From: Aquanectria penicillioides
Lineage: Eukaryota; Ascomycota; Sordariomycetes; Hypocreales; Nectriaceae
Direction of reading: 5' to 3'
DNA length: 64,000 bases
NCBI GenBank assembly: GCA_003415625.1
Contig: PYIU01000006.1
Span: 3,286,001-3,350,000 of the forward strand
In this document: one piece after another, positions 1,603-22,842 of the stretch
Numbering within the stretch: the first letter of the stretch is position 1
Layout: every line of letters starts with the position of its first letter
Notes under the pieces: model-generated
Database searches by the model: none
The model's input: only the letters and a program-made list of their open reading frames with translations
Told to the model about the DNA's origin: nothing
Program-made: the position numbers and the translations under genes

Positions 1603-2764
1603 TTTGAATGAGACGATTGAGTTGGTAATCGATTGTGTATTGTGTGAATTGAGTGTTGGAGATGAAGTGCCTAGGTAGGCGATATTTATACTAAATCAAT
1701 TGCTCATTACTGACAGCAATTATCAATTGTCGCGTAGGAATACGAGAATAAGTTATTGACTGGGCCGATTGGATAGGTCATAGTACCCATGTCATCACCT
1801 GCATGGGTCAACATCGCTTATTGGTCAACCAACCACAAGGAACCATTGTTCCGAGATCTTTGCGGGATGAGAACTTTAGTTGCACCAGACGTGACCAGAG
1901 AGGCGATATCTGGCGCTTGAATGTTTGTATGGGGCGCAGCGTAATATGGTTATGCTGGTTGACGGCCGAATACTACCTTGTCAGCTCGTATAGACTGAAT
2001 TGATGCCAAAATAGTCTCATTCCTATAGGACGCTCTGAAATCGCAAGTCATATAAACAATCCGTGGCCTTAACCGTCGATGTGAGTGGGGCTTGATCTGA
2101 GACAAGCTGCAGAGGCATGTGGCGAGGTGCTTGTAAATGAGCTGTTGGTCTAGTTTGGGCTTCATGAGCCGCTCGAAGCCGAGGCTGTTGAGTTAGGGTT
2201 GTTGCATCAAATGGCAGCGGTGGACTCTTGACGGTGTTGTAGGCCCCAACATTTGGATGTCGCCTATAGTGGTGAGCGCGTTAAGTGTCAGACAACTGTG
2301 CAAGTGTTGCCAAGGGACAAAACCGGCAGGTCGAATGTCTCCGATGCTGTAGGCCCCAACATTTGGATCATCGCCTCGTAGTGAGAATGTTAAGTGTCAG
2401 ACAGCTTGCAAGTGCTGGCATGGTTCCAGCCACGGGCGAATGTCTCCCTGCCATCGGTGCAGCGCTGTAATTCACCAAGTTGAGGTAGTGGCTGATTAAT
2501 CCTGCATGTAGTCCTTAGCTCCTCTTTTGTCTTGAAGGAGGGTGCAGCAGATAATCGCTCCGATTATGACGATGGTAGAAGGTTCTCGATTATTGATTTC
2601 AACCTACAAGCGGTCAACGAATCCAGTCAATCTCATAAGTATCTTAGTGTCGTCTACACCCGGAGCCTCCTGAAGGCAGTGTGTTTGAAGTCGGGCTAGA
2701 CTACAACCCAAGGTACTATAGAAGTTAAAAAGTGTTATAAAGAGGTATTTAAACTATGATAGGT
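1603..2764. other. Intergenic region, no gene seen
   Basis: AT-rich spacer between the small secreted protein gene and the aldehyde dehydrogenase 3' end. Apart from the 110-bp tandem duplication listed separately, only short chance reading frames are visible on both strands. Confidence 0.6.
2234..2455. repeat. Diverged tandem duplication, about 110-bp unit, two copies
   Basis: The string AGGCCCCAACATTTGGAT occurs at 2241 and again at 2351. Further matched blocks follow in the same order: TTAAGTGTCAGACA, then GCAAGTG, then GAATGTCTCC. The copies differ by substitutions and small indels, so the duplication is not recent. There is no coding potential. Confidence 0.85.
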
Positions 2765-4281
2765 CTACATCCCGTACCTCATTCCTGGCTGTGCCAAGCT
2801 TACAATCTTCCTCTCGGTAAACTCCTCCACCCCGGCTACCCCACCGAAGCGGCCGTACCCACTGCTCCCGCCGGTCCCACCATTCGGGAGGGGCGCTTCA
2901 ATGTACACGGTTGGCCCGTTGATGTGGCAGCTCCCCGCGCGGATCCGCTTGGCGACCCGGAGTGCGCGCATCACGTCCTGGGAGAAGACGCTCGCGCAGA
3001 GGGAAAACTCGCTGTTGTTGGCGAGGTCCACGGCCTCGTCGTCGGAGCGGGCCTCGGTGATGCAGATAATCGGGCCAAACGTCTCCCGCTGGAAAATGGC
3101 CATCTCGGGCGTGACGTTGGCGAGGACGTGAGGTGCCACAATCGTCTTGTTCGGGCCTGACGGGACGCCGTCGCCGGTCAGCAACTCGGCCCCCTCGGAG
3201 ACGGCCTGGCGGACGAGGTCGGTGATGCGGTTGCACGACGTCGCGGAGTAGAGGCCAGACATGGACACGGAGTCGTCCTGCTCGTGGTTTCCATACTTGA
3301 CTGCGCGCGCGCGCTCGACCAGGGCCGTCTTAAACTGCTCGGCAATGGACGAGTGGACAATGACACGCTCGGTGGACATGCAAATCTGGCCGCTGTTGGA
3401 GAGGGCGCCAAACACGACGGCCTCGACGGCGTCGGGCACGTTGGCGTCCTCCAGCACCAGCACCGGGGCCTTGCCGCCGAGCTCGAGGACGCACTGCTTG
3501 AGGCACGTCGCGGCCCAGCCTGCAATGACCCGGCCTACGCGGTCGCTGCCGGTAAAGTTGACGCGGAGGACCCTAGGATGCTTCACGGTGAACTCTGTGA
3601 CGGCGGGCGCGTCGGCGGCGCTGCTAGGCAAAAAGTTGAGGCACCCGGGAGGCAGCCCAGCCTGAGTAAGAGCCCTCACGACGAGGTGTTGCGACTTGGG
3701 GCTATACTCGGACGGTTTCAGCACCACGGTGTTGCCGCAGATGAGCGGACAGGCGATGGCGCGGGCCGTTAGGTTGACCTAATCTGTTAGCCCCATCGAT
3801 ACGCAGGACAGAGACTTACAGGAGCGTTCCACGGGCTGATTGCAAAGACGACGCCGACAGGACATCTCTCGACGAGAATCATTGTGCCTGGGCGGTCAGC
3901 TGGGATTATTTCGCCTTTAATCTGCGTGGCCAGGCCGGCCGTGTCTCTGAGGATGTTGGCCGATGCTTTAATGTTTAGCTGCACCCAGCTCTTGACGGCG
4001 GACACCTCTGCGGAGAGAATCTCAGGGGCGTCGGTATCAAGATATGTGTCTAGAATGTCTGCAGCCTTGAGCAGGATGAGCCTGCGAGCAGACGGTGGCA
4101 TTTCCGACCATGACTTGAATGCCTTGTGAGCATACTTGATGGCTTCGGAGTAGTCGTCGACGGTGGCGGCGGCACATGAATAAATGGACTGGCCGGTCAT
4201 GGGGTTGACCACAGGGAATGTGGCCCCGGTGGACGCCGGGCGGTATTGTCCATTGATGAAGAGGAGTTGATTTGATTCCAT
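2765..4281 (-). CDS. Aldehyde dehydrogenase (benzaldehyde/salicylaldehyde dehydrogenase-like)
   Basis: NAD(P)-dependent oxidation of an aldehyde to an acid. Two exons (4281-3820, 3778-2765) with a 41-nt intron (3779-3819) give 491 residues, normal for the family. ALDH hallmarks are present: 'ISPWNAPV', the cofactor lysine in 'VVLKPSE' (about K175), the general-base glutamate in 'LELGGKAP' (about E253) and the nucleophile in 'GQICMSTER' (about C287). The frame stays open upstream to 4401, but the ATG at 4281 ('MESNQLLFINGQ') fits the family start and leaves a 137-bp divergent promoter shared with the ThDP enzyme gene at 4419. The sequence resembles the salicylaldehyde/vanillin/benzaldehyde dehydrogenase branch. 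Next to a 2-oxoacid decarboxylase it would oxidise the released aromatic aldehyde. Substrate is inferred from context. Confidence 0.9.
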
Positions 4282-4352
4282 TGTGATTGAGTTGTGGTTC
4301 ATGAGATCCGGGAGCCTCTTGTAGGAGTGCATCGGAGCGATCGGGAAGCTGT

Positions 4353-4368
4353 CGGAAGCATGCATCCG
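4353..4368. promoter_or_regulatory. Palindromic CGG-N10-CCG element, divergent promoter 1
   Basis: CGG-AAGCATGCAT-CCG, an inverted CGG pair with 10-nt spacing as used by dimeric Zn2Cys6 factors. It sits 71 bp upstream of the aldehyde dehydrogenase ATG and 50 bp upstream of the decarboxylase ATG. Related elements occur in the other three cluster promoters. Confidence 0.7.
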
Positions 4369-4418
4369 AGACGGCGCATAAAACCGGGTATTCAGCATCA
4401 TAACTCGGCATCGTCAAC

Positions 4419-6199
4419 ATGGCTCAACGCATCAGCGGCGCAGCCGCCATCTTGTCTGCCCTGGAGGCAGCTGGAGTCTCCCATTTGTTTGTGAACCTGG
4501 GGTCTGATCACCCGGCGTTCCTGGCTGCGTTTGCCAGCAAGGCCCACAACATTCAGGTCTTCACCTCGCCCAATGAGATGAATGCGCTCTCTGCGGCCTC
4601 GGGGTTCGCGCAAATCACTGGCAAGCCGGCCGGAGTGCTCGTCCATGTTGAATGCGGGACCCAAGGCCTCGCGGGCGCCGTGCACAACGTGAGCAAGGGC
4701 CGGATCCCGGTGGTGATCCTTGCGGGGACGGTGCCAGTGACCATGGAGGGGGAGATGCGAGGGAGCAGAAACGAGTAAGTCCCAGTCAAGTATAACTGTT
4801 AGCTGTTGACTAACTGTTTAGATATATCCACTGGATTCAGGATGTGCCAGATCAAAGAGCGATTGTGCGGCAGTACATGAAGTACGAGCACGAGATTCGG
4901 TCTCCGCACAATGCGATCCAGATTGTGCTCCGCGCGGTGCAGTTTGCGACAACTGAGCCCAAGGGGCCTACGTATCTGATTGCCAGCCGCGAGACTCTGG
5001 AATCGGATACGACACCCGCGGATAAGGCGTCCCAGGTGGCGGCGCACAACTCGGTCGTCGAGTCGATTGGGCTGTCGCAGGCTGGCCTGGAGCATCTTGC
5101 AGCGGCGCTCCTCGAGGCGGAGAGGCCTCTCATCGTAACCAGCTACTGTGGCCGCTCCGCAGCTGGCTTCGACGCTCTCAAGGCCCTGGCCGAGCTGTTG
5201 GCGATTCCAGTCCACGAAAACGCTCCAATATACAACAATTTCCCCACCACGTCCTTTTTGCACCAGGGCCACCAGTGGAACGGCGGCGGCCAGCTTCCTG
5301 CGTTGGCAGAGGCCGACCTGGTGCTGGTTGTCGACTCGGACGTGCCGTGGATCGGCGCGCAGTCGCGGCCAAGCGAAACTGCGCGAATCTTCCATCTTGA
5401 CAGCGATCCGCTCAAGGACAATACGACGCTGTGGTCGCTGCCGTGCGAGAGGCGCTGGCGGGTTGATTCGAGCCTCGCGCTGGAGCAGCTGCGCTCGTTC
5501 GTTTCCAACGCAGTGGACGCGGCCAAGGTCGAGGCTAGGACTATCCGCCTCAAGGAGCGCTTTGCCCAGAGATTAGCAAGGCTCGACGCCGCAGAGGTTC
5601 CTACCGACGGGGTCACGGTTCCGTTTGTCATGGCAAGGCTCCGCGAGGCGTGCGCTGGGCTATCCGTCGTCGGGCTGAACGAGTCTACAACCAACCTGGG
5701 TAACGTTGCAGACCATCTTCGGCACGACGTGCCTCTGTCGCTCATCGGTAGCGGCGGCGGGTCGCTTGGGTGGTACTCTGGAGCCGCAATAGGGGCACAC
5801 ATGGCGCTCCAGTCGCAAGGACGCGACGACATGCTCATCGCCTTTACGGGGGACGGCACATGGCTGTTTGGCGTGCCGTCGTGCGCCTACTGGATGGCCA
5901 AGCGGTATGAGACGCCGTTCCTGACCATTATCTGGAACAATGGGGGGTGGGCGTCACCCAAGAATGCGTGTCTGCGGATCCACGGGGAGCTGGCTGCGCA
6001 GAGCAACCTGAGCGAGGACCTGCGCGTGGCTCTCACGCCGTCGCCTTCGTTTGGAAAGATTGCCGAGGGAGCAGGCGATGCGTGGTGGGGTGTAATCAGC
6101 CAGGTTGATCAGGTGGACAGGCTGCTCAAGGAGGCTGTCAGGGTGGTGCGGGAGGAGAAGCGATGCGGCCTGATAGAGGTCAAGATTCCGACCATTTAG
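4419..6199 (+). CDS. ThDP-dependent 2-oxoacid decarboxylase (benzoylformate decarboxylase-like)
   Basis: Two exons (4419-4774, 4822-6199) around a 47-nt intron (branch site GACTAAC) encode 577 residues. The fold order of the acetolactate synthase/benzoylformate decarboxylase superfamily is visible. The N-terminal PYR domain carries the cofactor-activating glutamate in 'SPNEMNA' (E53). A central domain follows, then a C-terminal PP domain with the ThDP/Mg motif 'GDGTWLFGVP' to 'WNNGG' (about 461-490). 'NLGSDHPAFL' (S29) and 'VHVECGT' (H76) align by eye with Ser26 and His70 of Pseudomonas benzoylformate decarboxylase; this is my alignment and needs testing. It is divergent from the aldehyde dehydrogenase and directly upstream of an FMN 2-hydroxyacid dehydrogenase, which supports a 2-oxoacid to aldehyde step. 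A generic acetolactate-synthase-like enzyme is the alternative. Confidence 0.85.
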
Positions 6200-6213
6200 G
6201 AAGCATGCATCCG
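6198..6213. promoter_or_regulatory. NGG-N10-CCG element, promoter 2
   Basis: AGG-AAGCATGCAT-CCG overlaps the stop codon of the decarboxylase and lies 49 bp before the ATG of the FMN dehydrogenase. Its N10 core is identical to that of the element at 4353. Confidence 0.65.
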
Positions 6214-6262
6214 TCAGGTATATCTAGAATCAGACAGCACCGTAAAATGCAGCACACCATCA

Positions 6263-7543
6263 ATGAATTCTAAACCTGCAGTTCACTCCATCGACGAGCT
6301 CGAAGAGTTCGCCACAAACCATCTCCCCCCGATGGTTCGTGACTACTTCAACGGGGGGCCCAGGACGGCGTGACGCTGAGGGCCAACAGGCAGGAATACC
6401 AGAGATGGTACATCCGGCCCCGGGTGCTCCGCAACGTCGCCGCCGTGGACACAAAGACCAGGGTGTTTCCGGGAGGAAATGAGCTTCCGTTCCCGTGCTG
6501 CGTAGCCCCGGCCGCGATGCAGCGGATGGCTCATCCCGACGGCGAGGTGGCGACGGCGCGAGGGTGCGGGGCGTTTGGCGCCGTCATGGGGTTGAGCACG
6601 TTTGCGACGACGTCGATGGAGGACGTCAAGCGGGCGTGTGACGAGGCGCGGGCTGAATCGGGGTTGTCTGGAGAGAGCGAGTGCGTGTTGCAAATGTACC
6701 TGTTCAGCAACAGAGAGACCAGCAGAGGTCTAGTCCGCAGGGCAGAAGGTATGTCGCCATGGCAAACTCCATGGTCAAACGCACGCTGACGGATGAAGCC
6801 GCCGGATACAAGGCGATTGTGCTTACAGTCGACACGCCGTTTTTCGGGCGACGACTGACGGAAATTCGAAACGGATTCAAGCTGCCGCCGCATCTGAAGC
6901 TGGCCAACTTTGATGCGTCGCTGGGCGTCAAGACGGGGTCAGAGCATCGAACCGACCAGATACAGGGAAAGACGGACACGGACGTGAACAAGCTAGGTAA
7001 GTCTCGACCTATGCAGCTAGAAAATGCTAATTTTCAGACCCTTCATTAACCTGGGAGGCCGTGTCATATCTCAAGAGCATCACGAAGCTACCCATCTGGG
7101 TCAAGGGCATCATGACGCCTGAAGACGCAGCCCTGGCGGTTGAAAACGGCGCCGACGCAATCTTCGTGTCCAACCACGGCGGCCGCCAGCTCGACGGATC
7201 GCCGCCGACCCTGCGAGTCCTGGAGAGCATCTGCCAGGTGGTTCAGGGGAGGGTTCCAGTGGTGAGTGAGCCCCATAACAGCCAGGCCCAGCTAACCGTG
7301 TAGCACTTTGACGGGGGGATCCGCCGCGGGTCGGACATTTTCAAGGCCTTGTGCCTGGGGGCGGACATGGTTTGGGTTGGACGGCCGGCGCTGTGGGCGA
7401 TTTCGTACGACGGAGAACGGGGGCTCGTGAATGCGCTCAAGGTGTTGGAGGAGGAGTTTCGGTCGTGCATGGCGCTGGCTGGATGTGTGCGCCTAGAGGA
7501 CTTGGGGGGAGACGTGTTGATGAGGAGCGATGCTCGATTGTGA
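6263..7543 (+). CDS. FMN-dependent 2-hydroxyacid dehydrogenase (mandelate/lactate dehydrogenase-like), one-base frame break
   Basis: Oxidises a 2-hydroxy acid to a 2-oxoacid with FMN. Four exons (6263-6748, 6799-6996, 7038-7261, 7304-7543; introns of 50, 41 and 42 nt) give about 382 residues once a single missing base is allowed at the G6 run 6353-6358. Upstream the frame reads 'MVRDYFNGG'; downstream it continues one frame over as '[11 protein letters not shown]'. Family motifs are 'RPRVLRNV', 'DTPFFGRR', the substrate loop '[10 protein letters not shown]' (catalytic His and Arg) and the phosphate loop 'DGGIRRGSD' to '[10 protein letters not shown]'. There is no N-terminal cytochrome b5 domain, so it is not a flavocytochrome b2. 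It would supply the 2-oxoacid for the upstream decarboxylase. The break may be an assembly undercall, because everything downstream is intact and spliced cleanly. Confidence 0.82.
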
Positions 7544-7711
7544 GAGATTTGAATATTTGTGTAGCCGTCTTTCAGTACCATTTCAGCTGCTATGCGTAAG
7601 GGAAATTCAATCAGGTATGGTCGTTCATGCCAACTCATGAAGTCTTATAGTCATACACCAAGTCACACTTGCCACTCTAAGTCATTCCAAGTCATACTAT
7701 TCATTACTAAT

Positions 7712-9032
7712 TCAATGCGCCCTAACATTGGATTGCTTGTTCCACCAGTTTGCACCTTCCTTGTCCAGCACCTCTGCATCATGACTAAACAGCCACTGTC
7801 GCCGGTCGTCATGGCCCCAAAAGACCGGGTTCTCCTCGGCGTTTAGACGCATCTGCTCGTCCCGCGCAACTTGCTCCTCGCCGTCGTCAATGTGCAGAAT
7901 GTACTGGTGCTCGCGGGTCTTCTCCTGCACCAGGCTGGCGCGAGGCATGCGGATGCTCTCGTATTTGAGCAGGGCCGACTCCAGGTCTAGGTCGAGGGCA
8001 AGACACTGGCGCAGCGTGGCGGCGTCCTCAAAGGCCTGGGCGGCTCCTTGCGCCAGGTACGGGAGCATGGGGTGGCAAGAGTCTCCCAGGAGAGCGACCT
8101 TGCCTGAGGAATGCACCCAGCGAGACAGTACGGGAAGGTCGCAGAGTCGCCACTTCATAAAGTCGCCGGTCAGGGCGCACAGCTTCTGAACGCGGCTCTC
8201 CCACTTGCCAAAGCGCTCGCAGAGCTCCCGGTTATCGCCCCGGATGACCCAGACCTCGTCCGTCGTCTCGTTGTGCGACGTGGCGCAGACGACAATATTG
8301 TACAGCTCGCCGTTGCGGATGGGATAGCCGACGAGATGGGCCTCCGGGCCGCACCACGAAGTCGTACAGGGATCAGTGATGAGCGAGGCCAGCTCGGAAT
8401 CGGCCAGCAGCTTCTCCCCGGGAATCAGGATGCGGTAGGCCACATCGCCGGTGTCACGGGGGATATCGGGCTGGCCGGTCAGGAGGGGACGGGCAATGGA
8501 CTTGATGCCGTCGGCACCAAGGACCAGATCAGCCTTGAAGACCTCTCCGTCCTGAGTGGTCACGCTAGGCGCGTCAAAGTCGTACTCGACCACTCGCTTC
8601 TTCTTCAAGACCTTGACCTTGGCCTCGTGAGCGGCGTCCAGCAGACCGGCGTGCAAATCGGCACGGTGGACCAGGTAGTAAGGGGCGCCATGAGTCTCAA
8701 CGATATTATCAAAGGGAACCTTGACGATGGTGTCGCCGTCCTTCCAGCGGATGAAGTGGTACTTGTTGGAGGTTGATTTCTTCATCTTGTCCATGTCGAC
8801 GCCCCAGCGAATGAGGAGACGGCTGGAGTTGGGAGGCACACGAATGCCAGCGCCAGCCTGAATGCGTTAGAAATGCAGGGATAAGATGCATTCAACCTAC
8901 CTCGGCGAATTCAGGGGCGGAGTCGATGATAGTCACGTTGTGGCCGTCAGTCTGGAGAGCCAGTCCGGCAGCGAGTCCACCCAGGCCGGCTCCGACAATG
9001 AGGACGTTGAGAGATCGAGTAGCAGTAGGCAT
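7712..9032 (-). CDS. FAD-dependent aromatic monooxygenase, salicylate hydroxylase type
   Basis: Two exons (9032-8901, 8857-7712) and a 43-nt intron encode 425 residues, a normal length. The N-terminal FAD-binding motif is 'IVGAGLGGLAAGLAL', the middle 'DG' motif is 'VLGADGIKS', and the C-terminal FAD motif is 'ALLGDSCHPMLPY', followed by 'GAAQAFEDA'. This is the group A flavoprotein pattern of salicylate 1-hydroxylase and 3-/4-hydroxybenzoate hydroxylases, which hydroxylate (often with decarboxylation) using NAD(P)H and O2. The gene is convergent with the FMN dehydrogenase and divergent from the MFS transporter. In the cluster it would act on the aromatic acid made by the aldehyde dehydrogenase. 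Benzoate itself is not a known substrate of this family, so a hydroxylated acid (salicylate or 4-hydroxybenzoate) is more likely. Confidence 0.88.
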
Positions 9033-9127
9033 GATGATGATTGAACTTGGTGATTAAACTTGGTGATCGATGATTGACTTGATGATCATCGAGGTTTTAT
9101 GATATTCAACTTCACATATCATCACTT

Positions 9128-9143
9128 TGGGTGCATGCACCCG
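9128..9143. promoter_or_regulatory. NGG-N10-CCG element, divergent promoter 3 (site a)
   Basis: TGG-GTGCATGCAC-CCG, a perfect 14-bp palindrome (GGGTGCATGCACCC) with the same 10-nt spacing and GCATGC core as the other cluster elements. It is 95 bp upstream of the monooxygenase ATG. The promoter also has short repeats of GAACTTGGTGAT near 9045-9070. Confidence 0.65.
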
Positions 9144-9167
9144 TCGGATCGCCGCCCCCGCTAGCCC

Positions 9168-9183
9168 CGGATGCATGACTCCT
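9168..9183. promoter_or_regulatory. CGG-N10-CCT element, divergent promoter 3 (site b)
   Basis: CGG-ATGCATGACT-CCT, 133 bp upstream of the transporter ATG. It is less symmetrical than the others: it keeps an ATGCATG core and one perfect CGG half-site. Confidence 0.5.
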
Positions 9184-9316
9184 AGCTTTCCCCAGACCCC
9201 AGCTACCCCAGATTCCCCTCCCCAGTCTTGGCGGAGCGCAACTACAAAATGCTGTGCATCGACGGATCAGCAGTGATTGAGCAATAGATCAATCAGCTTC
9301 TCGGACAGTTGATAGC

Positions 9317-10924
9317 ATGGCCGACACTACAATGCGCGTCTCTCAGGAGAAACAGGGCTTCGATCACCTTGAAAAAACAGAGCAGGCGTCTGTCCGCGAC
9401 GAGACAGATCCTGTAGAGGCAGCGAGAATCATCCGCAAGGTCGACCTTCGCATCCTGCCTTTGCTCATCCTGCTGTACACGTTGACGTTCTTGGACCGCG
9501 TCAACATTGGCAATGCGCGGCTGTGGAACCTGGAGAAGGATTTGAAAATGTCGGGATACCAGTACAACCTGGTGGTCATGAGTACGTGCCTTGCCCATCG
9601 CCAGACGATGCTAATTGTCAGTCTTTTACGTGCCTTACATCATCCTGGAGATTCCGTCCAACATGCTCTTCAGCCGGGTGCAGCCTCGGTACTACATTTC
9701 GTTTCTCGTCCTCGGATGGGGCCGTAAGTCAATTATCCCCGTTGATGGCCATTAGTAACCCGGGAATCCCAGTGTCGGTCACGTTTGCCGGCTTCTGCAC
9801 GTCGTTTGGCGGCCTCATGACGTCGCGAGTCTTTGTGGGTATCTTCGAAGCCGGCATGTTCCCCGGCTGCCTGTTCCTCATCGGCTCCTGGTACCGCCGC
9901 CACCAGCTGCTGACGCGAATGGCCTGGTTCATGGTGTCCAACGACATTGCGGGCACCATTTCCGGCCTGCTGGGCGCGGGCCTAGGCTCGCTCAACGGCG
10001 TCAGGGGCTACTCTGGCTGGTCCTGGATCTTCTTCATCGAGGGCGCCATGACGTGCGCGGCTGGTGCCCTGGCCTTTTTCTTCATCCCTCCGTTCCCTCA
10101 CGATTCCACGTTTCTGGAGCCCGAGGAGAAGGCGTGGCTGTTGCGGGCGCTCGAGGTCGACTCGCGGCAGAACAACAGCAAGCACGAGAAGGTGACGGCC
10201 AAGGGCGCGCTGCAGTCGCTCAAGGACTGGAAGGTTCTGACCGGCGGCGTGCTGTACCTAGCCGTTTGCGTCACGGCCTACTCCATCTCCGTCTTCACCC
10301 CGACCATTCTGCAGACGTTTGGGTGGAGCAGCCTAAAGTCGAACCTCTTGTCGGCGCCGATTCGAATCGTCTCGGGTATTGTGTCGGTCATTATCGGAAT
10401 TGCGTCTGACAAGACCAAGCGCCGCGGGCCGTTTTGCATCGGTGGCTACGCCTTCAGCATCGTGGGCCTGTTCCTGGTGATGCTCATCCACAACGGGAAC
10501 ATTCGGTACATGGGGCTGTACTTTTCGGCCATTGGCATCTACATCTGCCAGCCTCTAGTGGTTGCGTGGTGGTAAGTGGCTTGATCATGGGCAATTCAGC
10601 GCTAACGTATACAGTGTGAACCAGGTCGTGGGCAACGTCAAGCGGGGGACGGTGACGGCGTTTTCGGTCAGCTGCGGACAGGTCGGCGGCATCATCTCTG
10701 CGCTGGTGTTTCCCAACAGCGACGGGCCGTACTATGTGCCGGGCGTATCTGTGTGCATCGGGTTCCAGGTGGTGGGCATCATTGCGGCGGCGAACCTGTG
10801 GGCGTGCTGCGCGTGGGAGAACAAGCAGCGGGACCTAGGCAAGCGCGATCACCTGCGGGAGTTGCCCTCGGACGAGATGGAAAAGTTGGGCGAGAGGCAC
10901 CCAGACTTCCGATACACAACCTAG
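9317..10924 (+). CDS. MFS transporter, anion:cation symporter (Dal5/Tna1-like)
   Basis: Plasma-membrane uptake of a small organic anion, probably the aromatic or 2-hydroxy acid used by the cluster. Four exons (9317-9581, 9622-9723, 9773-10571, 10615-10924) with introns of 40, 49 and 43 nt give a protein of about 490 residues with roughly 12 hydrophobic segments. A charged N-tail leads into 'RKVDLRILPLLILLYTLTF'. The family loop 'LDRVNIGNAR', the motif-A-like stretch 'SDKTKRRGP' and the C-terminal 'PDFRYTT' are typical of the allantoate/nicotinate permease (ACS) family. It is divergent from the monooxygenase gene, with two candidate operators between them, and convergent with the regulator. 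Substrate is inferred only from neighbours. Confidence 0.88.
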
Positions 10925-11031
10925 AATCCATAGTCAAGATGTTAGGTCAATCGAGACGCAGACGAGGAGGGCCCGCGTCAGCGCCCCCGGAGGCGCTGTG
11001 GCGATGACTTAATAAATTATATTACTATCAC

Positions 11032-13379
11032 TCAAATTGGCTCGCTGTAACCTGCCAGCAACAACTCCATGTCTGACCACTCCGGCATCGGTAGGTCCTG
11101 TTCTCCTACGAGGGGCATGGCGTCAAAGTTGAGGGGTAGAAAGTCGAGAAGTCCCTCCATAGACTCGGCGAAGGGCATGGACGAGGTCATGTCGGCCTGG
11201 AGGTGGTCAAAGGCGCCCAGGCCGCTCATGAGGGTGCCGCTCTGGAAGCCTTGGGCGGGGGGGTTGGCGTTGGGCAACGGCTCGTTGGGGTTGTTGATGC
11301 ACTCTGAGAAGGTGTCGACGACTCTAGCGAAGCGCTTCATAGACCCAGCCTTTTCAGTGTGGTTGATGACGTCGCGGATGCTAGTAACGAGGGTGCGGAG
11401 GCAGGTTTGTAGGGGTTGGCTTGCACCTTCGAGTCGGAGGAGCCTGAGGATGAGGATCATGGCGGCGCAGTAGGCGTAGAAGATGTCAAGCCCGGACAGG
11501 CCGTTAATGACGTCAAAGTAGTCGAGCAGTAAGACGATATCGCCCAGTTGGATCGCGTGCTTGACGCAGACGGTGGCCAGGGGAGACACGGAACCGGTGG
11601 TTGTTTTGCGCAGCATGGCAATGTCGCGGAGGAGGACGGGTCTGGATGCGACAATGGCAATGTAGTGGAACTGGATGTGCAGGAGCAACACGGCGCGGAG
11701 CTGGGCGCGGGTCTTCCAGGCGAGGGACACCTTGAGCTCGTCCATGTCCATGGCAGCGGGGCCGGTCAGGGGGCTGTTGATCCACGGCACGTCGAAGCCG
11801 GGCGACTGGGAGATTTCGCGCTTCCACGAGTCCAGCGAGGAGAGGATCTCGTGGATGGTCGGGGGATTTTGGACGTTTCGGCCGATGTGCACCAGGCGCG
11901 TCTTGCCCAAGATGGCCTGGAGCTTGAGCGACCACGAGACGAGCTTGGCGTCGGCGCTGCCGCCGTCGACGAAGCCTTCCCGAGGGGCTACTATTTCGAC
12001 GTCTGCTTCGTGCAGGCCGCTGGGCCGGCCCAGGCTGGAGGAGAGGAACTGCTCAAAGGAGTAGAGGGTGCAGAAGACCCACTTGCGGACCTCGCGCTCC
12101 AGGGGGCGGAACGTCGAGGCCATGTCGGAGCGGTGCAGGCCGAGGGCGAAGGAGATGCGGGTTGCGGTGCCGACGAGGTTCCAGGCGGCGTTGCGCTCGT
12201 TGTTGTTGTGCAGGAACAGGGCCAGCAGCATGAGGACGCGCACGTTGGTGAGGGAGCACTTTGAGATGAACTGCGGGAGCAGGGCCCGAGCGGCGGCGAC
12301 GGAGCGGCGGCGGAGGCCGGCATGGTCGACGTTGGGGATGGTGCGGCCGGCGATGGACCCGAAGACGATCATCATGTGGAGGCATCCGATCCAGCCCCAG
12401 TCGGGCAGCGGGCGCCGTCGCGAGCGGGCGAGCTGGGGACGGCGGCGGGCCTGGACAACGTACAGCTCGTACTCGTCCTCAAAGGTGGCGCGGTGGAAGA
12501 GGGGGAAGTCATCGTGGACGTGCTTGAAGTAGGAGTGGATGAGCAGCTCGAGTGTCTCGTCGGGGGGGAACTGGCGGAGGACCTCGTCCATGTCGGCGAC
12601 GGGGAGGCGGGTAAAGTCCCGGGCGATGGTGGAGGTGATGGACCCGGGGGACGGGCCGTCCTGCGGCGTGGGGTCCTCGGGCTCGGCGCCGTCGGCATTG
12701 GCCTCCAGGGCCTGGGCGGTGTCGTCGCTGGCGAACTTGCTGGGGCCGCGGCCATCGGCGGGGTTGGAATCGACGAGCTTGCGCAGTTGGTTGAGGAAGT
12801 TAAGGGTGCCGGACGGGCCGATGTAGTGCTCGTGGCCGGAGGTGTCTCGGACGAGCGATACCTGAGGCTCCTCGTTTTGAGGCTTTGCACTGCCCTCCGG
12901 CTGGCCGTGAACCAAGTCTTCGATCTTGGGCGGGGATCGATTTGGGTCAGACAGGTTTGGCATCTTGTAGCCCATGCGCTGGCCCAGCTGCGACAGGTCT
13001 GCGACGGAGTCGAGGGGGTCGTCGGGGAACGCGGCCCTGACGATGGCCTCGAGGCATCGATACCTGGGAGGTTAGCAAAGCAAGCGAGGTGATGAATTGA
13101 GGCTCACCTGTCGCTCAGGTCGTCCAGGCTGCCGTAGAATCGCGTTTTGCGCGGCGCCGTGTAGGAGCAGGGCACATTGTGATCCAGGCAGGTAACGCAG
13201 CCAGTACCAGACGCAGACGGGACGCACTTGCATCGGCGCTGTGTTGTTTAGCTAATGTAGACCTAGGATACCGTCAGGCTCACCTTCCTGCAGCGGTCGC
13301 AGCTCTGCGCGTTTCGCTTACGGGACTCTTCAGGGATCCGCCTCAATCGGCGTTTCGTTGCAGCTGGAGATTCTGACAT
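11032..13379 (-). CDS. Zn2Cys6 transcription factor, candidate cluster regulator
   Basis: Three exons (13379-13284, 13238-13108, 13063-11032) with introns of 45 and 44 nt give 752 residues. The zinc cluster is C27-x2-C30-x6-C37 then C46-x2-C49-x6-C56, and the first intron splits it. A basic 'RKTRF' linker follows. The middle carries a fungal_trans-type domain ('LLIHSYFKHVHDDFPLFHR', 'GWIGCLHMMIVFGS'). An acidic, proline-containing C-terminus could activate transcription. It is divergent from the lactonase gene. A CGG-N10-CCG-like palindrome lies between them and similar ones in all other cluster promoters, which suggests autoregulation and control of the whole cluster; this link is inference. 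Confidence 0.88.
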
Positions 13380-13456
13380 GATTGCATGTTGATCGTACGG
13401 TGTCATCGATTCGGTGACTCCAGATCTTTAAGATCTGGGGGTCGAGATGGCGGGGT

Positions 13457-13472
13457 AGGAAGCATGCATCCG
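13457..13472. promoter_or_regulatory. NGG-N10-CCG element, divergent promoter 4
   Basis: AGG-AAGCATGCAT-CCG, with an N10 core identical to those at 4353 and 6198. It lies 77 bp upstream of the regulator ATG and 34 bp upstream of the lactonase ATG. Confidence 0.65.
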
Positions 13473-13506
13473 ACAAAGCCGCAAATGCGGGGGACCGACA
13501 CTTAAC

Positions 13507-14406
13507 ATGATGTTTCGCCGCGTCATTCCAAAGCTTAGCAGACCTCTATTCAGAATGACCAGCACACTTGCTCTCCCAGACTCGAGGATCCTGTCCTACT
13601 CGCTGGATGCAGCCGACGGCCCGGTGGTGCTGCTGTCCAACTCGCTGTGCGCGCCGCTGGGCGTGTGGGACCGGGTCGTCAAGGTCCTCAACGACAACGG
13701 CTACCGGACGCTTCGCTACGACCAGCCCGGCCACGGCCGCTCGTCGGCGCCGGCAAGCCTCGATACCACGTTCGACTCCATCTCGGACGACGTGCACGCG
13801 CTGCTCAAGTCGCTGGGCATCGCCAAGGTGCACTCGTGGATCGGCGTGTCGATGGGCGCGGCCACGGGGGTCTGGTTCGCCACCAAGTTCCCTGGGGTGG
13901 TGGCCAAGCTCGCCATCTGCGACACAATCTCGTCGTCGCCTGCAAACGCCGGGGTCGACGACGCCTTCGGCCCCAGGGTAGCGGCGGCGCGCGAGGCGGG
14001 CAGCATGGAGGCCACGGTCCAGGGCACGCTGGAGCGGTGGTTCGGGCAGGCCTGGCTGGACAGCAACCCGGGCGAGGCCGGGAGGATGCGCGCGCTCATG
14101 TCGGGGACGTCGATTGACGGGTTCGAGACGTGCTGCCACGCGCTGCGGAGCCCATCGTTCGATCTGCGCCCACTTTTCAGCAAGGTTGGGGCGTCGGTCG
14201 ACGATGCGGTCTGCGTGGTAGGCGAGAAGGACGCCAACCTTCCTCAGACCATGGAGGAGATGAGAGGCGAGGTGGAGCAGGGTTTCAAGGCTGCAGGAAA
14301 GAATAAAAAGGTTGAGCTCGTATTGATCAAAAACGCAGGCCACGTATGCTTCGTCGACGGGTTCCCGCAATTTGCAGACTTTATCGTCGGATGGCTACGC
14401 GCATAG
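13507..14406 (+). CDS. Alpha/beta hydrolase, 3-oxoadipate enol-lactonase-like
   Basis: Single exon, 299 residues. The alpha/beta-hydrolase triad is visible: nucleophile S115 in 'IGVSMGAATG', acid in 'VVGEKDANLP' and histidine in 'NAGHVCFVDG'. The string 'LRYDQPGHGRSSAP' is typical of the PcaD/CatD group, which opens 3-oxoadipate enol-lactone in the catechol and protocatechuate branches. The basic, hydroxylated first 16 residues could be an organelle-targeting leader, or the real start could be M17. It is divergent from the regulator gene across a shared candidate operator, so it is probably the last cluster member. No ring-cleavage dioxygenase or cycloisomerase is present in the window; those steps would be encoded elsewhere. 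Another alpha/beta hydrolase activity is possible. Confidence 0.82.
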   Translation: MMFRRVIPKLSRPLFRMTSTLALPDSRILSYSLDAADGPVVLLSNSLCAPLGVWDRVVKVLNDNGYRTLRYDQPGHGRSSAPASLDTTFDSISDDVHALLKSLGIAKVHSWIGVSMGAATGVWFATKFPGVVAKLAICDTISSSPANAGVDDAFGPRVAAAREAGSMEATVQGTLERWFGQAWLDSNPGEAGRMRALMSGTSIDGFETCCHALRSPSFDLRPLFSKVGASVDDAVCVVGEKDANLPQTMEEMRGEVEQGFKAAGKNKKVELVLIKNAGHVCFVDGFPQFADFIVGWLRA

Positions 14407-14697
14407 TCGTATCTGAATACGGTTTCGTAGCTCCAACCTTCTCGCCGCTTAGTTAGCACAGGGTTTCGCTCGGATCACTCTAGGATTGGACAATCTGACA
14501 TAATTTCAAAACATTTAATTAAAACACCGACTCCTATCTAGATGAATTGCCCAAATTGGAAGTCCCAGTCAGGCGGGCCCAATCGGCGCTGGGACCGCTA
14601 AGTGGCCTAATGCCAAAAAAAAATTACGGTCAATAATACGGTCAATCTATGTGACCTCTATACGCGCAAAAAGAAATCGTATTCGTCGTAAGCTCTA

Positions 14698-16519
14698 TCA
14701 ATGCAATCCGCTCTCTCCGGTTTTGGCCATGTGGTCCTGGCAATCGAGTAGTATTCTCAGCTGGTCGCTGACGTCCTGGAGGCGGCTGAGCACCTTTTGG
14801 TTGCCGTCGACGAATCCGAGGATCGAGTAGGGCACGCCGGTGTCGCGGCAAAACTCCTTGGTCAGCGTCTGGACCTTGCGGAGGTTGTGTCGGGGCACGC
14901 GGGGAAACAGGTGGTGCACGGCCTGGAACTGGAGACCGCCGTGGATAAAGTCGAGCCAGGCGGGGCAGTCGACGTCCATGGTGGTGCGCAGCTGGCGCTG
15001 GGGGAACGACTCGGACTCGCCCAGGTTGACGGTAGACATGCCCCAGTGGGACAGGGTGATCTGCACGTGCAGCGGCATGGTGACGATGTGGGAGACGAGG
15101 ACGAAGATTACGCGGGTGGTCCAGTCGGGGAGGCTGCGCCAGAGCAGGCAGTAGCCGAAGATGAACCAGTAGCAGGCCATGAAGGAGATCTCGGCGGGGC
15201 GAATCCACCAGGCCTTGCTGCCGCCGAGGCTGGTGGACTTGTCGGAGAGGACGTGGATCCAGGAGAGGAGGTACAGATTGAAGCGGGCGATGCCCATGAC
15301 GGGGTAGTAGGTGTACTTTTGGAAGGGACGAGGAAGTCGGCGGCGGCGTCCCAGACGAAGGTGAAGTTGTAGTAGGTGGAGTGCAGAGACTTGAAAAAGG
15401 TGGTGCAGGTAGCGAACAGGGGGACGTTTTGGATATCAGGGTCGTGTTCCTAGACAGTCAGCGACGGAGGCATAGGCAGAGGGTGGCAGGCTTACCGGCT
15501 GGTTGGTCACCAGGTGGTGGACGTTGTGGCTGCTCTTCCACCATCCGATGGACAGGCCGCAGCAAAAGTCGGCGACAAACATGCCGATGAGCGTGTCGAC
15601 GACAAAGTTGGACGTGATTGCCAAATGACCGGCGTCATGCGCCGTAAACATGATTTGGTGCTACAGGCGTCAGCAGGATTCAATGCGCGCGAAAGGGGGA
15701 GGCGGCTTACCCAAAACAGGCCCAGAAACACGGCAGAGGTGATGTACCAGTGGTGGTAGAAGAAGAAGGCAAACAGGGCAAACAGGATGGTGTAGCGCGT
15801 CATCTCTTTGCCGTACTCAATGTAGGGGCAGTCGTACAGGCCGCTGTCAGCGATGCGCTTGTGCAGCTCCTGGTACTTGCGGGCAATGTCCTGCTGGACG
15901 ATGGGGTCCAGCGAGGGGTAGACGTTAAGCTCGTGCTCGATCTCGCGCTCGACGGCGGCGTTGACGACTCTGGTGACGGCGGATCGCTGGCAGGGGACGG
16001 TGGGCAGAGGGCCGCGGTGCCGCAGCTCGCTGTTCTGCTTGGGGTTGCAGCAGCTGCAGACAGAGGTCATCTGGCTGGTGGCGTCGGTGTTGTCGGCATC
16101 CGTGTCCGAGCTGTCCGCTTCTGGCACTTCGATTGCCTCCTTCGCGAAGACTCCTCCTCGAATCGGGGGTGTGCGGTTGGTCCAGGTTCCCTCCTTGCGG
16201 CCGATGCGATAGGCCTTCATGGTGCGCAGGGTTGCGACGGAGTGGTAGCTGTTCACATGTCAGCCGTCAGCGGAAGCGAATGCGGAAGCGGCGCGCGAGC
16301 GTGTGCGAGCGCCAGCTGCATCGCCACGATGCGTACGTACGCTTTGATTTCGTCAGTAGAGTCGCGACCGACCATGTGCAGGATGGCCAGCCGGCCGCCG
16401 GGGTGCTTGTTCATCCAGCCATCGAGCTTCAGGACGTGGTCTTCGTAAATGACAATGGTTTGGCCGTCGGCGATCAGCTTGTCCACCATGCACGGTGTGT
16501 AGAGCTGGTCCCGATCCAT
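14698..16519 (-). CDS. Cytochrome b5-fused fatty acid desaturase, delta-8 sphingolipid desaturase-like; one-base frame break
   Basis: Front-end desaturase of the ER membrane, acting probably on the sphingoid base. Four exons (16519-16341, 16248-15711, 15660-15496, 15449-14698; introns of 92, 50 and 46 nt) give about 544 residues if one missing base at 15325-15327 is allowed. There the frame changes between 'AAADFLV' and 'FQKYTYYPV'. The N-terminal cytochrome b5 domain has its haem histidines in 'NKHPGGR' and 'KAYHS'. Three histidine boxes follow: 'HDAGH', 'HNVHH' and 'QAVHH' (Gln in the third box, as in cytochrome b5-fused front-end desaturases). A longer N-terminus from 16597 is open, but the ATG at 16519 fits the family better. 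The break lies in a short C run and may be a sequencing undercall. Confidence 0.87.
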
Positions 16520-16599
16520 GGCGTCGGTCGGTGGATAGAGAGAAGTTGTCGTGTCGAAATTCCAGGCAAAAAAAAATAATAGGCAGCGATTGATCAAGC

Positions 16600-18589
16600 G
16601 ATAATCAATTGGCAGTCACGGTGAACGTTTGTGATTGAAGAGGCAGGAACGGAACAGAACAGCAAACTAAACAGCGACCACGTCCCCTCTTGAGCTATAT
16701 TCACTCAGGGGAGCCAAGCTTCGTCCCCCAGCAAGCCCCGTCGAAGCCAAGACATAGCCTAGCCTAAAGTACACGGCCCATTTTGTGTTACGTTGACAGA
16801 CAATCATAGAACTTGGAAGCGTCGTGTTGGCGTCCACACGAAATCTCTTCAAAGGGATGAGCGTCGCAACAATTTCCACTTGCCCAATGGAGCAGGAGGT
16901 CGGGGTGTCTCCCTAGCAGTAGCAGTGGCGGAGCCAAACCCCAGTACAGGACGCCAGGGCAAGGGCACGCACCCCCAGAGGGCGAGCCAGATGCTTGGAT
17001 CATCGTCAATTGGGCGGCATCGTCTTGGCCCGGATTAAAGTGTTGAGGGGCTCGGTGACAGGACCCTGAAACTGGACACCTGCGTCGACGTGCGAGTTCT
17101 AGACCGCGCTCCCCCCCCAGCACCAGCTGACTCGAGATGTGGAGGGTGAGTTAGTCGGGGAACTGCCCCAAATTAGCGTCGTACTGATGCGGGCTGAGCT
17201 TATTTGTGCGAGATTAGGAGATTGGATGCGAAAATTTATCGCTTTTTCCGCATTCGGACTCGCATTTGCTCTGGCCACCTGCCTATCACTGCGCATCCTT
17301 TGCAGAACACCAGGCCATAATCGAACCATTGGGATCTGCGCGAGCCGTAAACTTCCATCCCAGAGAAATCGACGGACGAATCTGAAGGCAAGGGAAAATC
17401 TTAGCGGTGAGCTGCGCCCCTTTTGTCGCAATGCTGGGGCCCCTGATGCACAGAGGCTCGAGCCAGTGGCTTCGGCTGCCCTGGTGTGGGGCCGCGGTGA
17501 AGTTTGGGGGACGGCGCACAAGCCATCATCTCTCGCGCTGCTAGCTCGTTGTCCTCCTCCACTGTGCGTGTCAGTTTAACCACAAACTGCAGCGTGCCGT
17601 CCAACGAGCGGCGGTTGGCTACTGCTGTAGAATGGCGAGGACGTTAGTTCGGAGGTTATAATTGAGGATTGACTTGACTGGTGCACAACCGGCAGCGCTG
17701 CCAATGCGATTGCCGCAACATGTCGCGAATCTCGCCTCAATGTCCATGCGTGGAGGATCTGACTAGGATGCCAAGCTCGCAGCCTACCTACGGTAGATGT
17801 GCCTACGGCAAGATGCATTTCTGAGCCCACGTGCAATTCTGTCTCGTACCGAGGGGCAACCTTCTACGCCCACGCCCTGTCGCCTCCCACAGATCTCTTC
17901 TCGAATCGTTCTGTCGCACTGGACCTAGTGTGGGTGGCGCCGACGACCGCCGTTTGGCAATAAATACGTAGATCCCAGGAGTGACGCGTCGAGCACCCAC
18001 AATGGCCTCAGGGGGATTGAGGCTGTGGGTGGCCATCGTATTCTGTACGGCGGTTGAGAACTCTCTTTACGCTGTACGCACGTAGTCTGACATTTGCTGC
18101 ACTGCTGTCTGTCCTGACCTGGCGCGATGTCGGCATTCTCCGTGCGGGTCTATTTGTACGGAGGTCGAATTGGCCCAGAGTGTCCAAGAGGTCCCGAGAT
18201 GCCTCAAGATGCTCAGAGATGCCTTTAACCGCCCAGATGCATCTCTGAATGACTTCACAATGGATATATACTTTAGATTGCCTAAATTGGCCGTTTGGCG
18301 GGCTTAGGGCCAATCGGCGCCTCGCCGGTCGGGGTGGTCGTCTTCCATGATGGGGTTCCGAAGCATCCGGCGTCTAGACGAGAGTCGGCGTCAGGTCGGG
18401 GCGGGGGCTGGCGGCGTTGATTGAGAACTGAGAATAATTGGGAATAGTTGGGAACAATTGAGAATTGACAAAGGTTCAATCGTGGCATTGAACAGTCAAT
18501 TGACGGAAGACGCTGGCAATTGGCTTGTCCACCACTCCATGCAGCCAGCATAACGGCCATGGCAGTGCGGCTTTTACTTCTGCATCGCA
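16600..18589. other. Long intergenic region, no gene seen
   Basis: About 2 kb between the desaturase 5' end and a decayed oxygenase gene. Reading frames here are short, overlap on both strands and show no recognisable motif, signal peptide or splice structure. Confidence 0.5.
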
Positions 18590-19552
18590 ATGACATCCTT
18601 TACGGATATGTACACAGATTCCAATCATTGACTTGGCGCTGGCCAATGACCCAGAAACCTTCCCCCGCCTACTCAGCAGCCTCAGGACCGCCCTCACAGA
18701 AGGCTTCCTGCACGTGTCCATCCACGCGGTCGCTCAGCGCGCGATTGACGACCCGGTCGGGATGCTCCCTGCCCTGTGCTCTTCGCGCTCGAAGACTCCC
18801 CACACTTTCTGGGCTACATCCTACAGCGCCGCGGGCACAGAGACTACGGCCGGGCGGGCTGATCAAAGGGAGCAGGTGGAGTTTGCGACGGAGCTGGAGG
18901 CGTGCGAGGGCCCTCTGTACGAGGGTTGCGAGGGTCCAATCAAGTACGAGGCAATACGGAGATTTCAGAAACCTGCTAAGCAGCGAAATAGTGCCGGGCG
19001 ATATCCAAGAGTTGGCCAGACTGGGTGAGCGGTTTCTGCAAGTCGCGGCTGCGGCACTGGGGCTCCCTGGCGACTCGTTCTTCTCGTACCTGTCGGATCA
19101 GCACCAGCTCAAACTAGTGCGCTATCCTGCAGCGGACGAAAATGGACGGCGTGGGGCCCCACAAGGATTCGTCCGAATGGTGGGCCTTTTTCTCCAAGCA
19201 TCGTCCGAGGCGGAGGGCTGCAGGTGCTCAACAAGAATGCAGAATGGGTCAACGTGCCAGCTGTGTGCGGGAAGTTTGTAGTCAACATCGGCCAAGCCTT
19301 TGAGGTGGTGACGCACGGCGCCTGCAAGGCTACGACGCCCGCGTGGTGTCGAGCTCGCGAGGGCGATTCAGCGCTCCATTCTTCCAGGGAGTCCGCAGAG
19401 CTTGACGAGGCGCGAGGCTGTAACCGCTGGCTGGGCACTTTGGATGGTTTGGCTCTGGAATTGAGTCTGGCGAGGGCGTCGCCGTTGACTCACCGTTTCT
19501 GGCGGAAATTTCATCCCCAGGTGTATGATAGATACGTGGATGAGTCTTCATG
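18590..19552 (+). pseudogene. 2OG-Fe(II) oxygenase (isopenicillin N synthase-like) relic
   Basis: Homology-like blocks appear in family order but jump between all three forward frames. They are 'IIDLALANDPETFPRLLSS', 'FALEDSPHFLGY', 'TETTAGRADQREQVEFATEL', 'FLSDQH'-like 'FSYLSDQHQLKLVRYP', an iron-site-like 'GPHKDSSEWW', then 'VNIGQAFEVVTHGACKATT', an 'RVVSS'-like stretch, and the tail 'THRFWRKFHPQVYDRYVDE'. At least four frame changes are needed (near 18770, 18820, 19190 and 19340), and no set of GT-AG introns explains them. The original enzyme would be a non-haem iron dioxygenase of secondary or specialised metabolism. The density of breaks makes real decay more likely than sequencing error. 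Confidence 0.75.
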
Positions 19553-22728: not shown

Positions 22729-22842
22729 CTCGGTGTCTATGCTTGGTTGTGAAGCTGTCGACTGTTCTGAGCTGACAAATTGAAGCCAAAAGGAGCAAGC
22801 CGAGCGCAGGTAAGAGCAAGCCGAGTTGGGGTTTCTTAGTGG

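What the first reader, a model, noticed from the sequence alone, without database searches (positions are those of the whole stretch)
4353..13472. A shared NGG-N10-CCG palindrome with GCATGC core in every promoter of the cluster
Seen: CGG-AAGCATGCAT-CCG (4353), AGG-AAGCATGCAT-CCG (6198), TGG-GTGCATGCAC-CCG (9128), CGG-ATGCATGACT-CCT (9168) and AGG-AAGCATGCAT-CCG (13457). These cover all four cluster promoter regions. The three AAGCATGCAT copies are identical although their surroundings are not. Established: dimeric Zn2Cys6 factors bind inverted CGG pairs with fixed spacing. Inference: this is the operator of the factor encoded at 11032-13379, including autoregulation.
Basis: partly seen in the sequence, partly recalled or inferred. 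Interest (0 to 1): 0.9.

Follow-up and report, generated by a model that had tools for sequence, protein, structure and literature searches.

The report
Shared operator of an aromatic-acid gene cluster
Five copies of one 16-letter near-palindrome sit in front of all seven genes of a fungal gene cluster that probably breaks down aromatic acids, and almost nowhere else in the genome, so they are very likely the docking sites of the zinc-cluster regulator encoded in the cluster.

Summary
All five sites are present as written. In the 53.76-Mb genome CGGATGCATGNNTCC occurs 4 times, all in this cluster; GGNNGCATGCNNCC occurs at 50 places, 4 of them here, and a random-placement bound for such a clump anywhere is 4.5e-6. 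All four intergenic regions that hold gene starts carry a site; both convergent regions carry none. With one mismatch allowed, rows outside the cluster are at control level (64 against 71), so no wider regulon is visible.
The seven genes encode an aldehyde dehydrogenase, a benzoylformate-decarboxylase-like enzyme, an FMN 2-hydroxyacid dehydrogenase (frame broken in this assembly), a hydroxybenzoate-hydroxylase-like monooxygenase, an MFS transporter, a Zn2Cys6 regulator and a PcaD-like hydrolase. Regulator and hydrolase are neighbours in many other fungi; the decarboxylase is patchier.
Best reading: the regulator at 11032-13379 binds these sites as a dimer and switches the cluster, itself included. 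Binding and regulation are inferred, not shown. Conservation of the sites in other fungi was not tested; I had no fungal DNA beyond this genome.

The parts
4353..4368 (.). Site 1, CGGAAGCATGCATCCG, between divergent ALDH and decarboxylase genes (72 bp and 51 bp from their ATGs)
6198..6213 (.). Site 2, AGGAAGCATGCATCCG, overlapping the decarboxylase stop codon, 50 bp before the FMN dehydrogenase ATG (6263)
9128..9143 (.). Site 3, TGGGTGCATGCACCCG, divergent monooxygenase/MFS region, 96 bp from the monooxygenase ATG
9168..9183 (.). Site 4, CGGATGCATGACTCCT, the most degenerate copy, starting 40 bp after site 3, 134 bp from the MFS ATG
13457..13472 (.). Site 5, AGGAAGCATGCATCCG, between the divergent regulator (78 bp) and hydrolase (35 or 83 bp) genes
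2765..4281 (-). Aldehyde dehydrogenase gene (491 aa, intron 3779-3819)
   Evidence: PF00171 E 2.7e-133
4419..6199 (+). ThDP-dependent, benzoylformate-decarboxylase-like gene (577 aa, intron 4775-4821)
   Evidence: PF02776, PF00205, PF02775; best solved relatives are named benzoylformate decarboxylase, 4q9d E 4.1e-23; best NCBIfam model for the second exon is a generic ThDP protein, NF006203, 360.8 bits, under its cut-off of 456
6263..7543 (+). FMN-dependent 2-hydroxyacid dehydrogenase gene; reading frame changes near 6346-6358 in a run of six G in this assembly
   Evidence: PF01070 in three separate pieces; frame change seen by tblastn
7712..9032 (-). FAD monooxygenase gene (425 aa, intron 8858-8900), nearest in sequence to solved decarboxylative vanillate / 4-hydroxybenzoate enzymes
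   Evidence: PF01494; 8x38 'Decarboxylative Vanillate 1-Hydroxylase' E 2.7e-88, 8gsm '4-hydroxybenzoate decarboxylase' E 3.2e-87; best NCBIfam model 3-hydroxybenzoate 6-monooxygenase, 220.3 bits, under its cut-off of 459
9317..10924 (+). MFS transporter gene (491 aa, three introns)
   Evidence: PF07690 E 5.9e-42
11032..13379 (-). Zn2Cys6 regulator gene (752 aa, introns 13239-13283 and 13064-13107); proposed reader of the five sites
   Evidence: Zn cluster residues 25-64 (Pfam 20.0 bits, just under the cut-off of 21), Fungal_trans E 3.6e-20; Gal4, Lac9, Put3 and Leu3 DNA-binding domains found by sequence; aligned with 22 homologs
13507..14406 (+). Alpha/beta hydrolase gene, 3-oxoadipate enol-lactonase (PcaD)-like; start at 13507 or, from homolog lengths, 13555
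   Evidence: PF00561 E 7.6e-21; TIGR02427 130.7 bits, below its cut-off of 255.85; many homologs are 285-286 aa

Best explanation
The five sites are the cluster-specific operator (upstream activating sequence) of the Zn2Cys6 protein encoded at 11032-13379. A homodimer reads the two inverted GG(A/G) ends, which have 10 bp between them, plus the GCATGC-type centre. It activates seven genes from four 5' regions, its own gene included. The cluster takes up an aromatic or related acid (MFS), oxidises a 2-hydroxyacid (FMN enzyme), decarboxylates the 2-oxoacid (ThDP enzyme), oxidises the aldehyde (ALDH) and hydroxylates the resulting hydroxybenzoate with loss of its carboxyl group (monooxygenase), i.e. 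a mandelate-type route. Shown: the sites, their near-exclusivity in the genome, their confinement to 5' regions, the gene families. Inferred: that this protein binds them, the sign of regulation, autoregulation, and the substrate.
For: Genome-wide near-exclusivity and control-level one-mismatch rows elsewhere. 4 of 4 start-bearing intergenic regions against 0 of 2 convergent ones. Flanks of the near-identical copies look unrelated by eye, as for a binding site and not a duplicated segment. The regulator has the full six-cysteine cluster, with two arginines where Gal4 has two lysines; Gal4 Lys18 contacts the CGG bases (PMC5559640 passage). Regulator and hydrolase homologs have consecutive locus tags in 10 of the 11 genomes whose tags could be compared and share 37 contig lengths; regulator, hydrolase and decarboxylase share 12, so the regulator belongs to this cluster. 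Precedent: Otf1p binds GGRN10WCC in front of 3-oxoadipate genes, among them the 4-hydroxybenzoate 1-hydroxylase gene, by EMSA (PMC8929692 passages). The 4-fold induction of tanR when tanX is deleted is read by its authors as self-induction (PMC10512348 passages).
Against: No binding or expression data. The sites were not checked in any other fungus. Sites lie 35-134 bp from start codons, which would suit a repressor as well as an activator. Many fusaria in the listed hits have the regulator-hydrolase pair but no listed decarboxylase homolog, so the regulator is not dedicated to the decarboxylase module. In Sarocladium strictum regulator and hydrolase tags are far apart, and in two Sporothrix species regulator and decarboxylase tags are far apart. 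Autoregulation is no rule: the GTF1 gene lacks the site that Gtf1p uses before the other genes of its cluster (PMC8929692 passage). The solved-structure match of the regulator covers only its N-terminal part, and the Pfam zinc-cluster score is 1 bit under its cut-off.
Confidence: 0.77

Rival explanations
1. The sites are bound by another zinc-cluster or other factor encoded elsewhere, and the resident regulator uses a different element or acts indirectly.
For: Inverted GG...CC ends are generic for the family; this genome has other Zn2Cys6 genes, e.g. at 21892-23031 and in locus L038.
Against: A factor with other targets should leave sites elsewhere; the exact CGGATGCATGNNTCC sites are confined to this cluster and one-mismatch rows outside it are at control level. 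No other word of 9 or 10 bases recurs three times in the cluster's intergenic sequence, apart from sub-words of the motif.
Confidence: 0.12
2. The same protein binds the sites but as a repressor whose sites overlap the core promoters, released by an aromatic ligand.
For: Short distances to start codons (35-134 bp).
Against: By recall, most pathway-specific Zn2Cys6 proteins are activators, and Otf1p, Gtf1p, QA-1F and TanR are called activators in the passages or abstracts seen.
Confidence: 0.09
3. Two factors share the element: the zinc-cluster dimer takes the GG/CC ends and a second protein takes the palindromic GCATGC centre.
For: The centre is as conserved as the ends in four of five sites, which is unusual for a mere spacer.
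Against: GCATGC alone is common (29 in the window) and not confined to the cluster; centre and ends occur together at fixed spacing.
Confidence: 0.08
4. The repeats are a chance clump, a duplicated segment, a mobile-element footprint or an RNA hairpin.
For: Three copies share 15 bases. In the whole region with its coding sequence some other words of 9-10 bases recur four or five times.
Against: Random-placement bounds of 4.5e-6 to 2e-11 (the tighter ones use patterns fitted to the sites); flanks unrelated by eye; 0 of 3000 random draws reach the shared word length; of words of 12 or 13 bases only sub-words of the motif recur three times in 2701-14500; RNA folding of four site segments is no better than shuffles, z -0.72 to +0.31.
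Confidence: 0.02

Closest known systems
Candida parapsilosis Otf1p and its site GGRN10WCC (PMC8929692, passages read)
   Same: A Zn2Cys6 activator whose inverted GG...CC sites stand before 3-oxoadipate-pathway genes, among them the 4-hydroxybenzoate 1-hydroxylase gene MNX1 and a transporter gene.
   Different: Otf1p sites have 12 bp between GG and CC, here 10; the Otf1p motif is written with a free N10 spacer, here the centre is fixed in four of five sites. Homology of the two proteins was not tested.
Neurospora QA-1F and its 16-mer GGATAATCGATTATCC (as quoted in PMC8929692; site variants in PMC3114802, passages read)
   Same: A 16-bp palindromic GG...CC element used in a catabolic gene cluster for a plant acid.
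   Different: 12 bp between GG and CC, a different centre, and no QA-1S-type repressor gene among the seven genes annotated here.
Yeast Put3 and CGG-N10-CCG (spacing recalled, not read in a paper here)
   Same: Same triplet spacing; Put3's zinc cluster is among the solved domains found by sequence (1ajy, E 0.0079).
   Different: Put3 regulates proline genes (recalled); similarity covers only the zinc-cluster stretch, and the best solved match is Gal4 (3coq, E 6.7e-6), whose spacing is 11 (recalled).
Mandelate catabolism of Aspergillus niger (biochemistry of 1970 as cited in PMC12388069, passage read)
   Same: Order of chemistry: hydroxyacid, oxoacid, aldehyde, acid, hydroxybenzoate.
   Different: A. 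niger continues to protocatechuate; the monooxygenase here resembles decarboxylating hydroxylases. The substrate here is inferred only.

Membership tests
Inverted-repeat CGG operator of a dimeric Zn2Cys6 factor | Two inverted CGG-like triplets at fixed spacing, repeated in target promoters | tested here: met
   GG and CC with 10 bp between them in 5 of 5 sites; the triplet is a full CGG on at least one strand in all five, on both in one
Inverted-repeat CGG operator of a dimeric Zn2Cys6 factor | Enrichment in target 5' regions over the rest of the genome | tested here: met
Inverted-repeat CGG operator of a dimeric Zn2Cys6 factor | Cognate protein with six-cysteine cluster, linker and coiled coil | tested here: inconclusive
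   Six cysteines in canonical spacing; linker conserved among homologs; Pfam Zn_clus 20.0 bits, 1 bit under its cut-off; coiled coil not computed
Inverted-repeat CGG operator of a dimeric Zn2Cys6 factor | Demonstrated binding | not testable with these tools
   needs EMSA or DAP-seq
Inverted-repeat CGG operator of a dimeric Zn2Cys6 factor | Conservation of sites in orthologous clusters | not testable with these tools
QA-1F / Otf1p site type | GG and CC separated by 12 bp | tested here: not met
   separation is 10 bp in 5 of 5 sites
Mandelate-type catabolic cluster | 2-hydroxyacid dehydrogenase, 2-oxoacid decarboxylase-like enzyme and aldehyde dehydrogenase together | tested here: met
   the FMN gene is frame-broken in this assembly
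Mandelate-type catabolic cluster | Decarboxylase is a true benzoylformate decarboxylase | tested here: inconclusive
   best solved relatives are benzoylformate decarboxylases, but NCBIfam gives a generic ThDP model first and the benzoylformate model is far under its cut-off, 77.7 of 493 bits, on the second exon

The most novel reading that the evidence does not exclude
A zinc-cluster dimer that reads its spacer as well as its triplets: the strongly conserved arginine/lysine arm in front of the cysteine cluster (R10, R13, R14, R20, K21, R22 invariant in the 23 aligned sequences) reaches over the palindromic GCATGC centre. This makes a recognition sequence of about 13 specified bases, long enough that a 54-Mb genome holds its exact form at a single locus, and gives a pathway switch with no exact off-target site.
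Probability: 0.3. Interest if true: 0.6.

Novelty: new member of a known kind. Interest (0 to 1): 0.45.

Why it matters
Only a few regulators of aromatic metabolism in fungi have been identified, a gap stated in PMC12388069 (passage). This pairs a regulator family found in many ascomycete genomes with a concrete, testable operator. The motif also marks the likely limits of the cluster and predicts that its seven genes are co-induced. In the ten paper searches made here (open-licence papers only) no listed title or abstract beginning describes this motif or a regulator of a fungal mandelate-type cluster; most of the papers matched were not listed or read. If the spacer is really read, it would be a useful case of how zinc-cluster factors gain specificity.

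Tried and rejected
RNA hairpin: rejected, folding energies of four site segments are like shuffles. Duplicated segment: rejected, flanks unrelated by eye. Regulon beyond the cluster: of 69 rows with up to one mismatch 5 are in the cluster and 64 elsewhere, against 71 rows for the reversed control. I fetched ten regions, nine around off-cluster near-matches and one around a monooxygenase paralog that I did not go on to examine. The C1:2344310 copy lies in an open frame just after a Zn2Cys6 gene, the C12:3168350 copy in an MFS coding frame, and one of the pair in C1:3624000-3630500 in a short-chain dehydrogenase frame; among the ten ORFs of those regions that I scanned none was clearly of this pathway. 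The ORF calls there rest on a crude codon score and stop-to-stop frames, and most ORFs there were not scanned. No hydroxyquinol-dioxygenase hit (PF04444: five matches at four loci) lies within 100 kb of a motif site listed. One near-match (C12:852450) is 2.3 kb from a monooxygenase paralog; I judged it chance. Seven of the ten flanking ORFs scanned (all at 42-736 and 14642-19281) gave no Pfam hit.

Bacterial relatives of the decarboxylase (the best 80 of 170 loci were kept) were used to test the pathway idea: an ALDH relative lies in 38 of 80 loci, an FMN dehydrogenase relative in 6 of 80, a mandelate-racemase-family gene in 1 of 80 (several loci are cut short by contig ends). This supports decarboxylase plus ALDH, and only weakly the full mandelate route.
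Full report
The window lies in a fungal genome of 53,758,348 bases in 13 contigs (C10:3286001-3350000). The regulator's nearest homolog is from Thelonectria olida (79% identity), followed by many fusaria at roughly 57-69%, so the organism is probably a nectriaceous fungus (inference).

Observation. The description needs small corrections. The most constant element is the half-site CGGATGCATG, exact in four of the five sites; 9128 has CGGGTGCATG. The opposite half is weaker (AGGAAGC or CGGAAGC in three sites). The 9168 copy lacks the GCATGC core. GG and CC with 10 bp between them are present in 5 of 5.

Chance. In the window, GGNNGCATGCNNCCG with up to one mismatch gives 12 rows against 2.54 expected, with 0 of 100 shuffles as high; 9 rows are the five sites (most read on both strands) and 3 lie elsewhere. 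Genome-wide, CGGATGCATGNNTCC has 4 sites and all 4 are in this 9.1-kb stretch; GGANGCATGCNTCC has 4 places, 3 here; AAGCATGCATCCG has 5, 3 here; GGNNGCATGCNNCC has 50 places, 4 here. The reversed-pattern controls gave 1, 1, 2 and 12. The patterns were fitted after seeing the sites, so the fairest figure is the loosest one: 4 of 50 places in 0.017% of the genome, with a bound of 4.5e-6 for such a clump anywhere. With one mismatch allowed CGGATGCATGNNTCC gives 69 rows, 5 of them in the cluster and 64 elsewhere, against 71 rows for its control. A test without a chosen pattern agrees: the longest word shared by three of the four 5' regions is 15 bases, against at most 11 in 3000 random draws; by all four, 10 against at most 7. 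In the intergenic sequence no other word of 9 or 10 bases recurs three times; in the whole region with coding sequence some 9- and 10-mers do recur as often, but at 12 and 13 bases only the motif does.

Position. Gene models give four intergenic regions holding gene starts (ALDH/decarboxylase, decarboxylase/FMN gene, monooxygenase/MFS, regulator/hydrolase) and two convergent ones (FMN gene/monooxygenase, MFS/regulator). Sites are in 4 of 4 of the first and 0 of 2 of the second. Sites 3 and 4 start 40 bp apart. The three longest-matching copies have flanks that look unrelated, which fits a binding site.

Genes. ALDH (PF00171), ThDP enzyme (closest solved proteins are benzoylformate decarboxylases), FMN 2-hydroxyacid dehydrogenase (PF01070 in pieces), FAD monooxygenase (closest solved: a decarboxylative vanillate 1-hydroxylase and a protein deposited as 4-hydroxybenzoate decarboxylase, E about 1e-87), MFS transporter, Zn2Cys6 regulator and a PcaD-like hydrolase. 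None of the NCBIfam models for the decarboxylase exon, the monooxygenase exon or the hydrolase reaches its cut-off. The order of chemistry is mandelate-like; the exact substrate is inferred. Bacterial relatives of the ThDP enzyme stand with an ALDH relative in 38 of 80 fetched loci; one locus (L062) also has a mandelate-racemase-family gene and an FMN dehydrogenase.

Conservation of the neighbourhood. The collections open to me held no other fungal genomes, so I used the names and contig lengths in the protein lists. Regulator and hydrolase homologs have consecutive locus tags in 10 genomes (FDECE, FZEAL, NW762, N0V84, NW752, ACJ41O, ACHAPT, F66182, F53441, Hte) and far-apart tags in one (Sarocladium strictum NLU13); Sodiomyces alcalophilus, whose model numbers do not look positional, was left out. 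Regulator and decarboxylase tags lie within 3-13 numbers in four genomes (FDECE, FZEAL, ACJ41O, Hte) and far apart in two Sporothrix species. Equal contig lengths: 37 for regulator and hydrolase, 15 for regulator and decarboxylase, 12 for all three. Equal length is taken as the same contig, an inference; counts are lower bounds, since only the best 120 hits of each search were listed and 70 of the 120 decarboxylase rows were compared. Many fusaria with the regulator-hydrolase pair have no listed decarboxylase homolog; the list (120 of 3393 hits) reaches down to 45% identity. So the regulator-hydrolase pair looks older and wider than the decarboxylase module, whose genes here carry the same operator as the regulator itself.

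Regulator. Its cluster is C-X2-C-X6-C-X8-C-X2-C-X6-C. Where Gal4 has Lys17/Lys18 (numbers recalled), of which Lys18 contacts the CGG bases (PMC5559640 passage), this protein has two arginines, R33 and R34 (alignment). In 23 aligned sequences (the query and 22 of the 120 listed homologs) the basic stretch before the cysteines is strongly conserved (R10, R13, R14, R20, K21, R22 invariant), as is the linker YTxPRKTRFYGSxDDLSDRY; three of the sequences (P0013, P0017, P0089) have gaps in the zinc cluster itself, perhaps from gene prediction. The linker is what generally sets half-site spacing (PMC6080790 passage).

Mechanism. I think most likely that a dimer of this protein sits on the five sites and activates the cluster, itself included, when an aromatic-acid intermediate is present. 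Closest parallels are Otf1p on GGRN10WCC before the 3-oxoadipate genes of Candida parapsilosis (EMSA) and QA-1F on its 16-mer. The spacing differs: 10 bp between GG and CC here, 12 there. Put3's CGG-N10-CCG has the same spacing (recalled). Self-regulation has a precedent in TanR and a counter-example in Gtf1p, whose own gene lacks the site. The fixed GCATGC centre is the unusual part and may be read directly by the basic arm; this is speculation that a gel shift can settle.

Limits. Nothing here shows binding or expression. The motif's rarity elsewhere depends on pattern searches over one assembly whose search tool warns that very common words and simple repeats may be skipped. Gene models are hand-made from splice signals.

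Noticed in passing
window 6346-6358: The FMN dehydrogenase reading frame changes inside a run of six G: homology continues in a different frame without room for an intron. It may be an assembly error or a real loss of the gene; left as it is.
   Followed up: partly
regulator, decarboxylase and hydrolase homologs: Regulator and PcaD-like hydrolase are neighbours in many fungi, while the decarboxylase is patchy; the decarboxylase module may have joined an older regulator-hydrolase unit.
   Followed up: partly
L062 7001-14916: In Verticiella sediminum a relative of the decarboxylase is followed by ALDH, a LysR regulator, a mandelate-racemase-family gene, a TctC binding protein and an FMN dehydrogenase; this looks like a bacterial mandelate-type operon.
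   Followed up: partly
L038 570-3381 (C1:2341500-2347500): The only off-cluster GGANGCATGCNTCC copy lies in an open frame directly behind another Zn2Cys6 regulator gene; probably coding and chance, not examined further.
   Followed up: partly
window 19755-24326: A second alpha/beta hydrolase (19755-20768), a second Zn2Cys6 gene (21892-23031) and a zinc alcohol dehydrogenase-like frame (23607-24326) lie 5-10 kb beyond the cluster; no exact motif there, one one-mismatch match at 22683.
   Followed up: no
P0333, P0334, P0337, P0342: Hydrolase homologs in Hypoxylon and relatives are named 'zearalenone lactonase' by their source, presumably automatic naming; the gene neighbourhood suggests an aromatic-acid role.
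   Followed up: no
window 63149-63187 and 62000-62030: Short tandem repeats with 10-bp and 12-bp periods.
   Followed up: no
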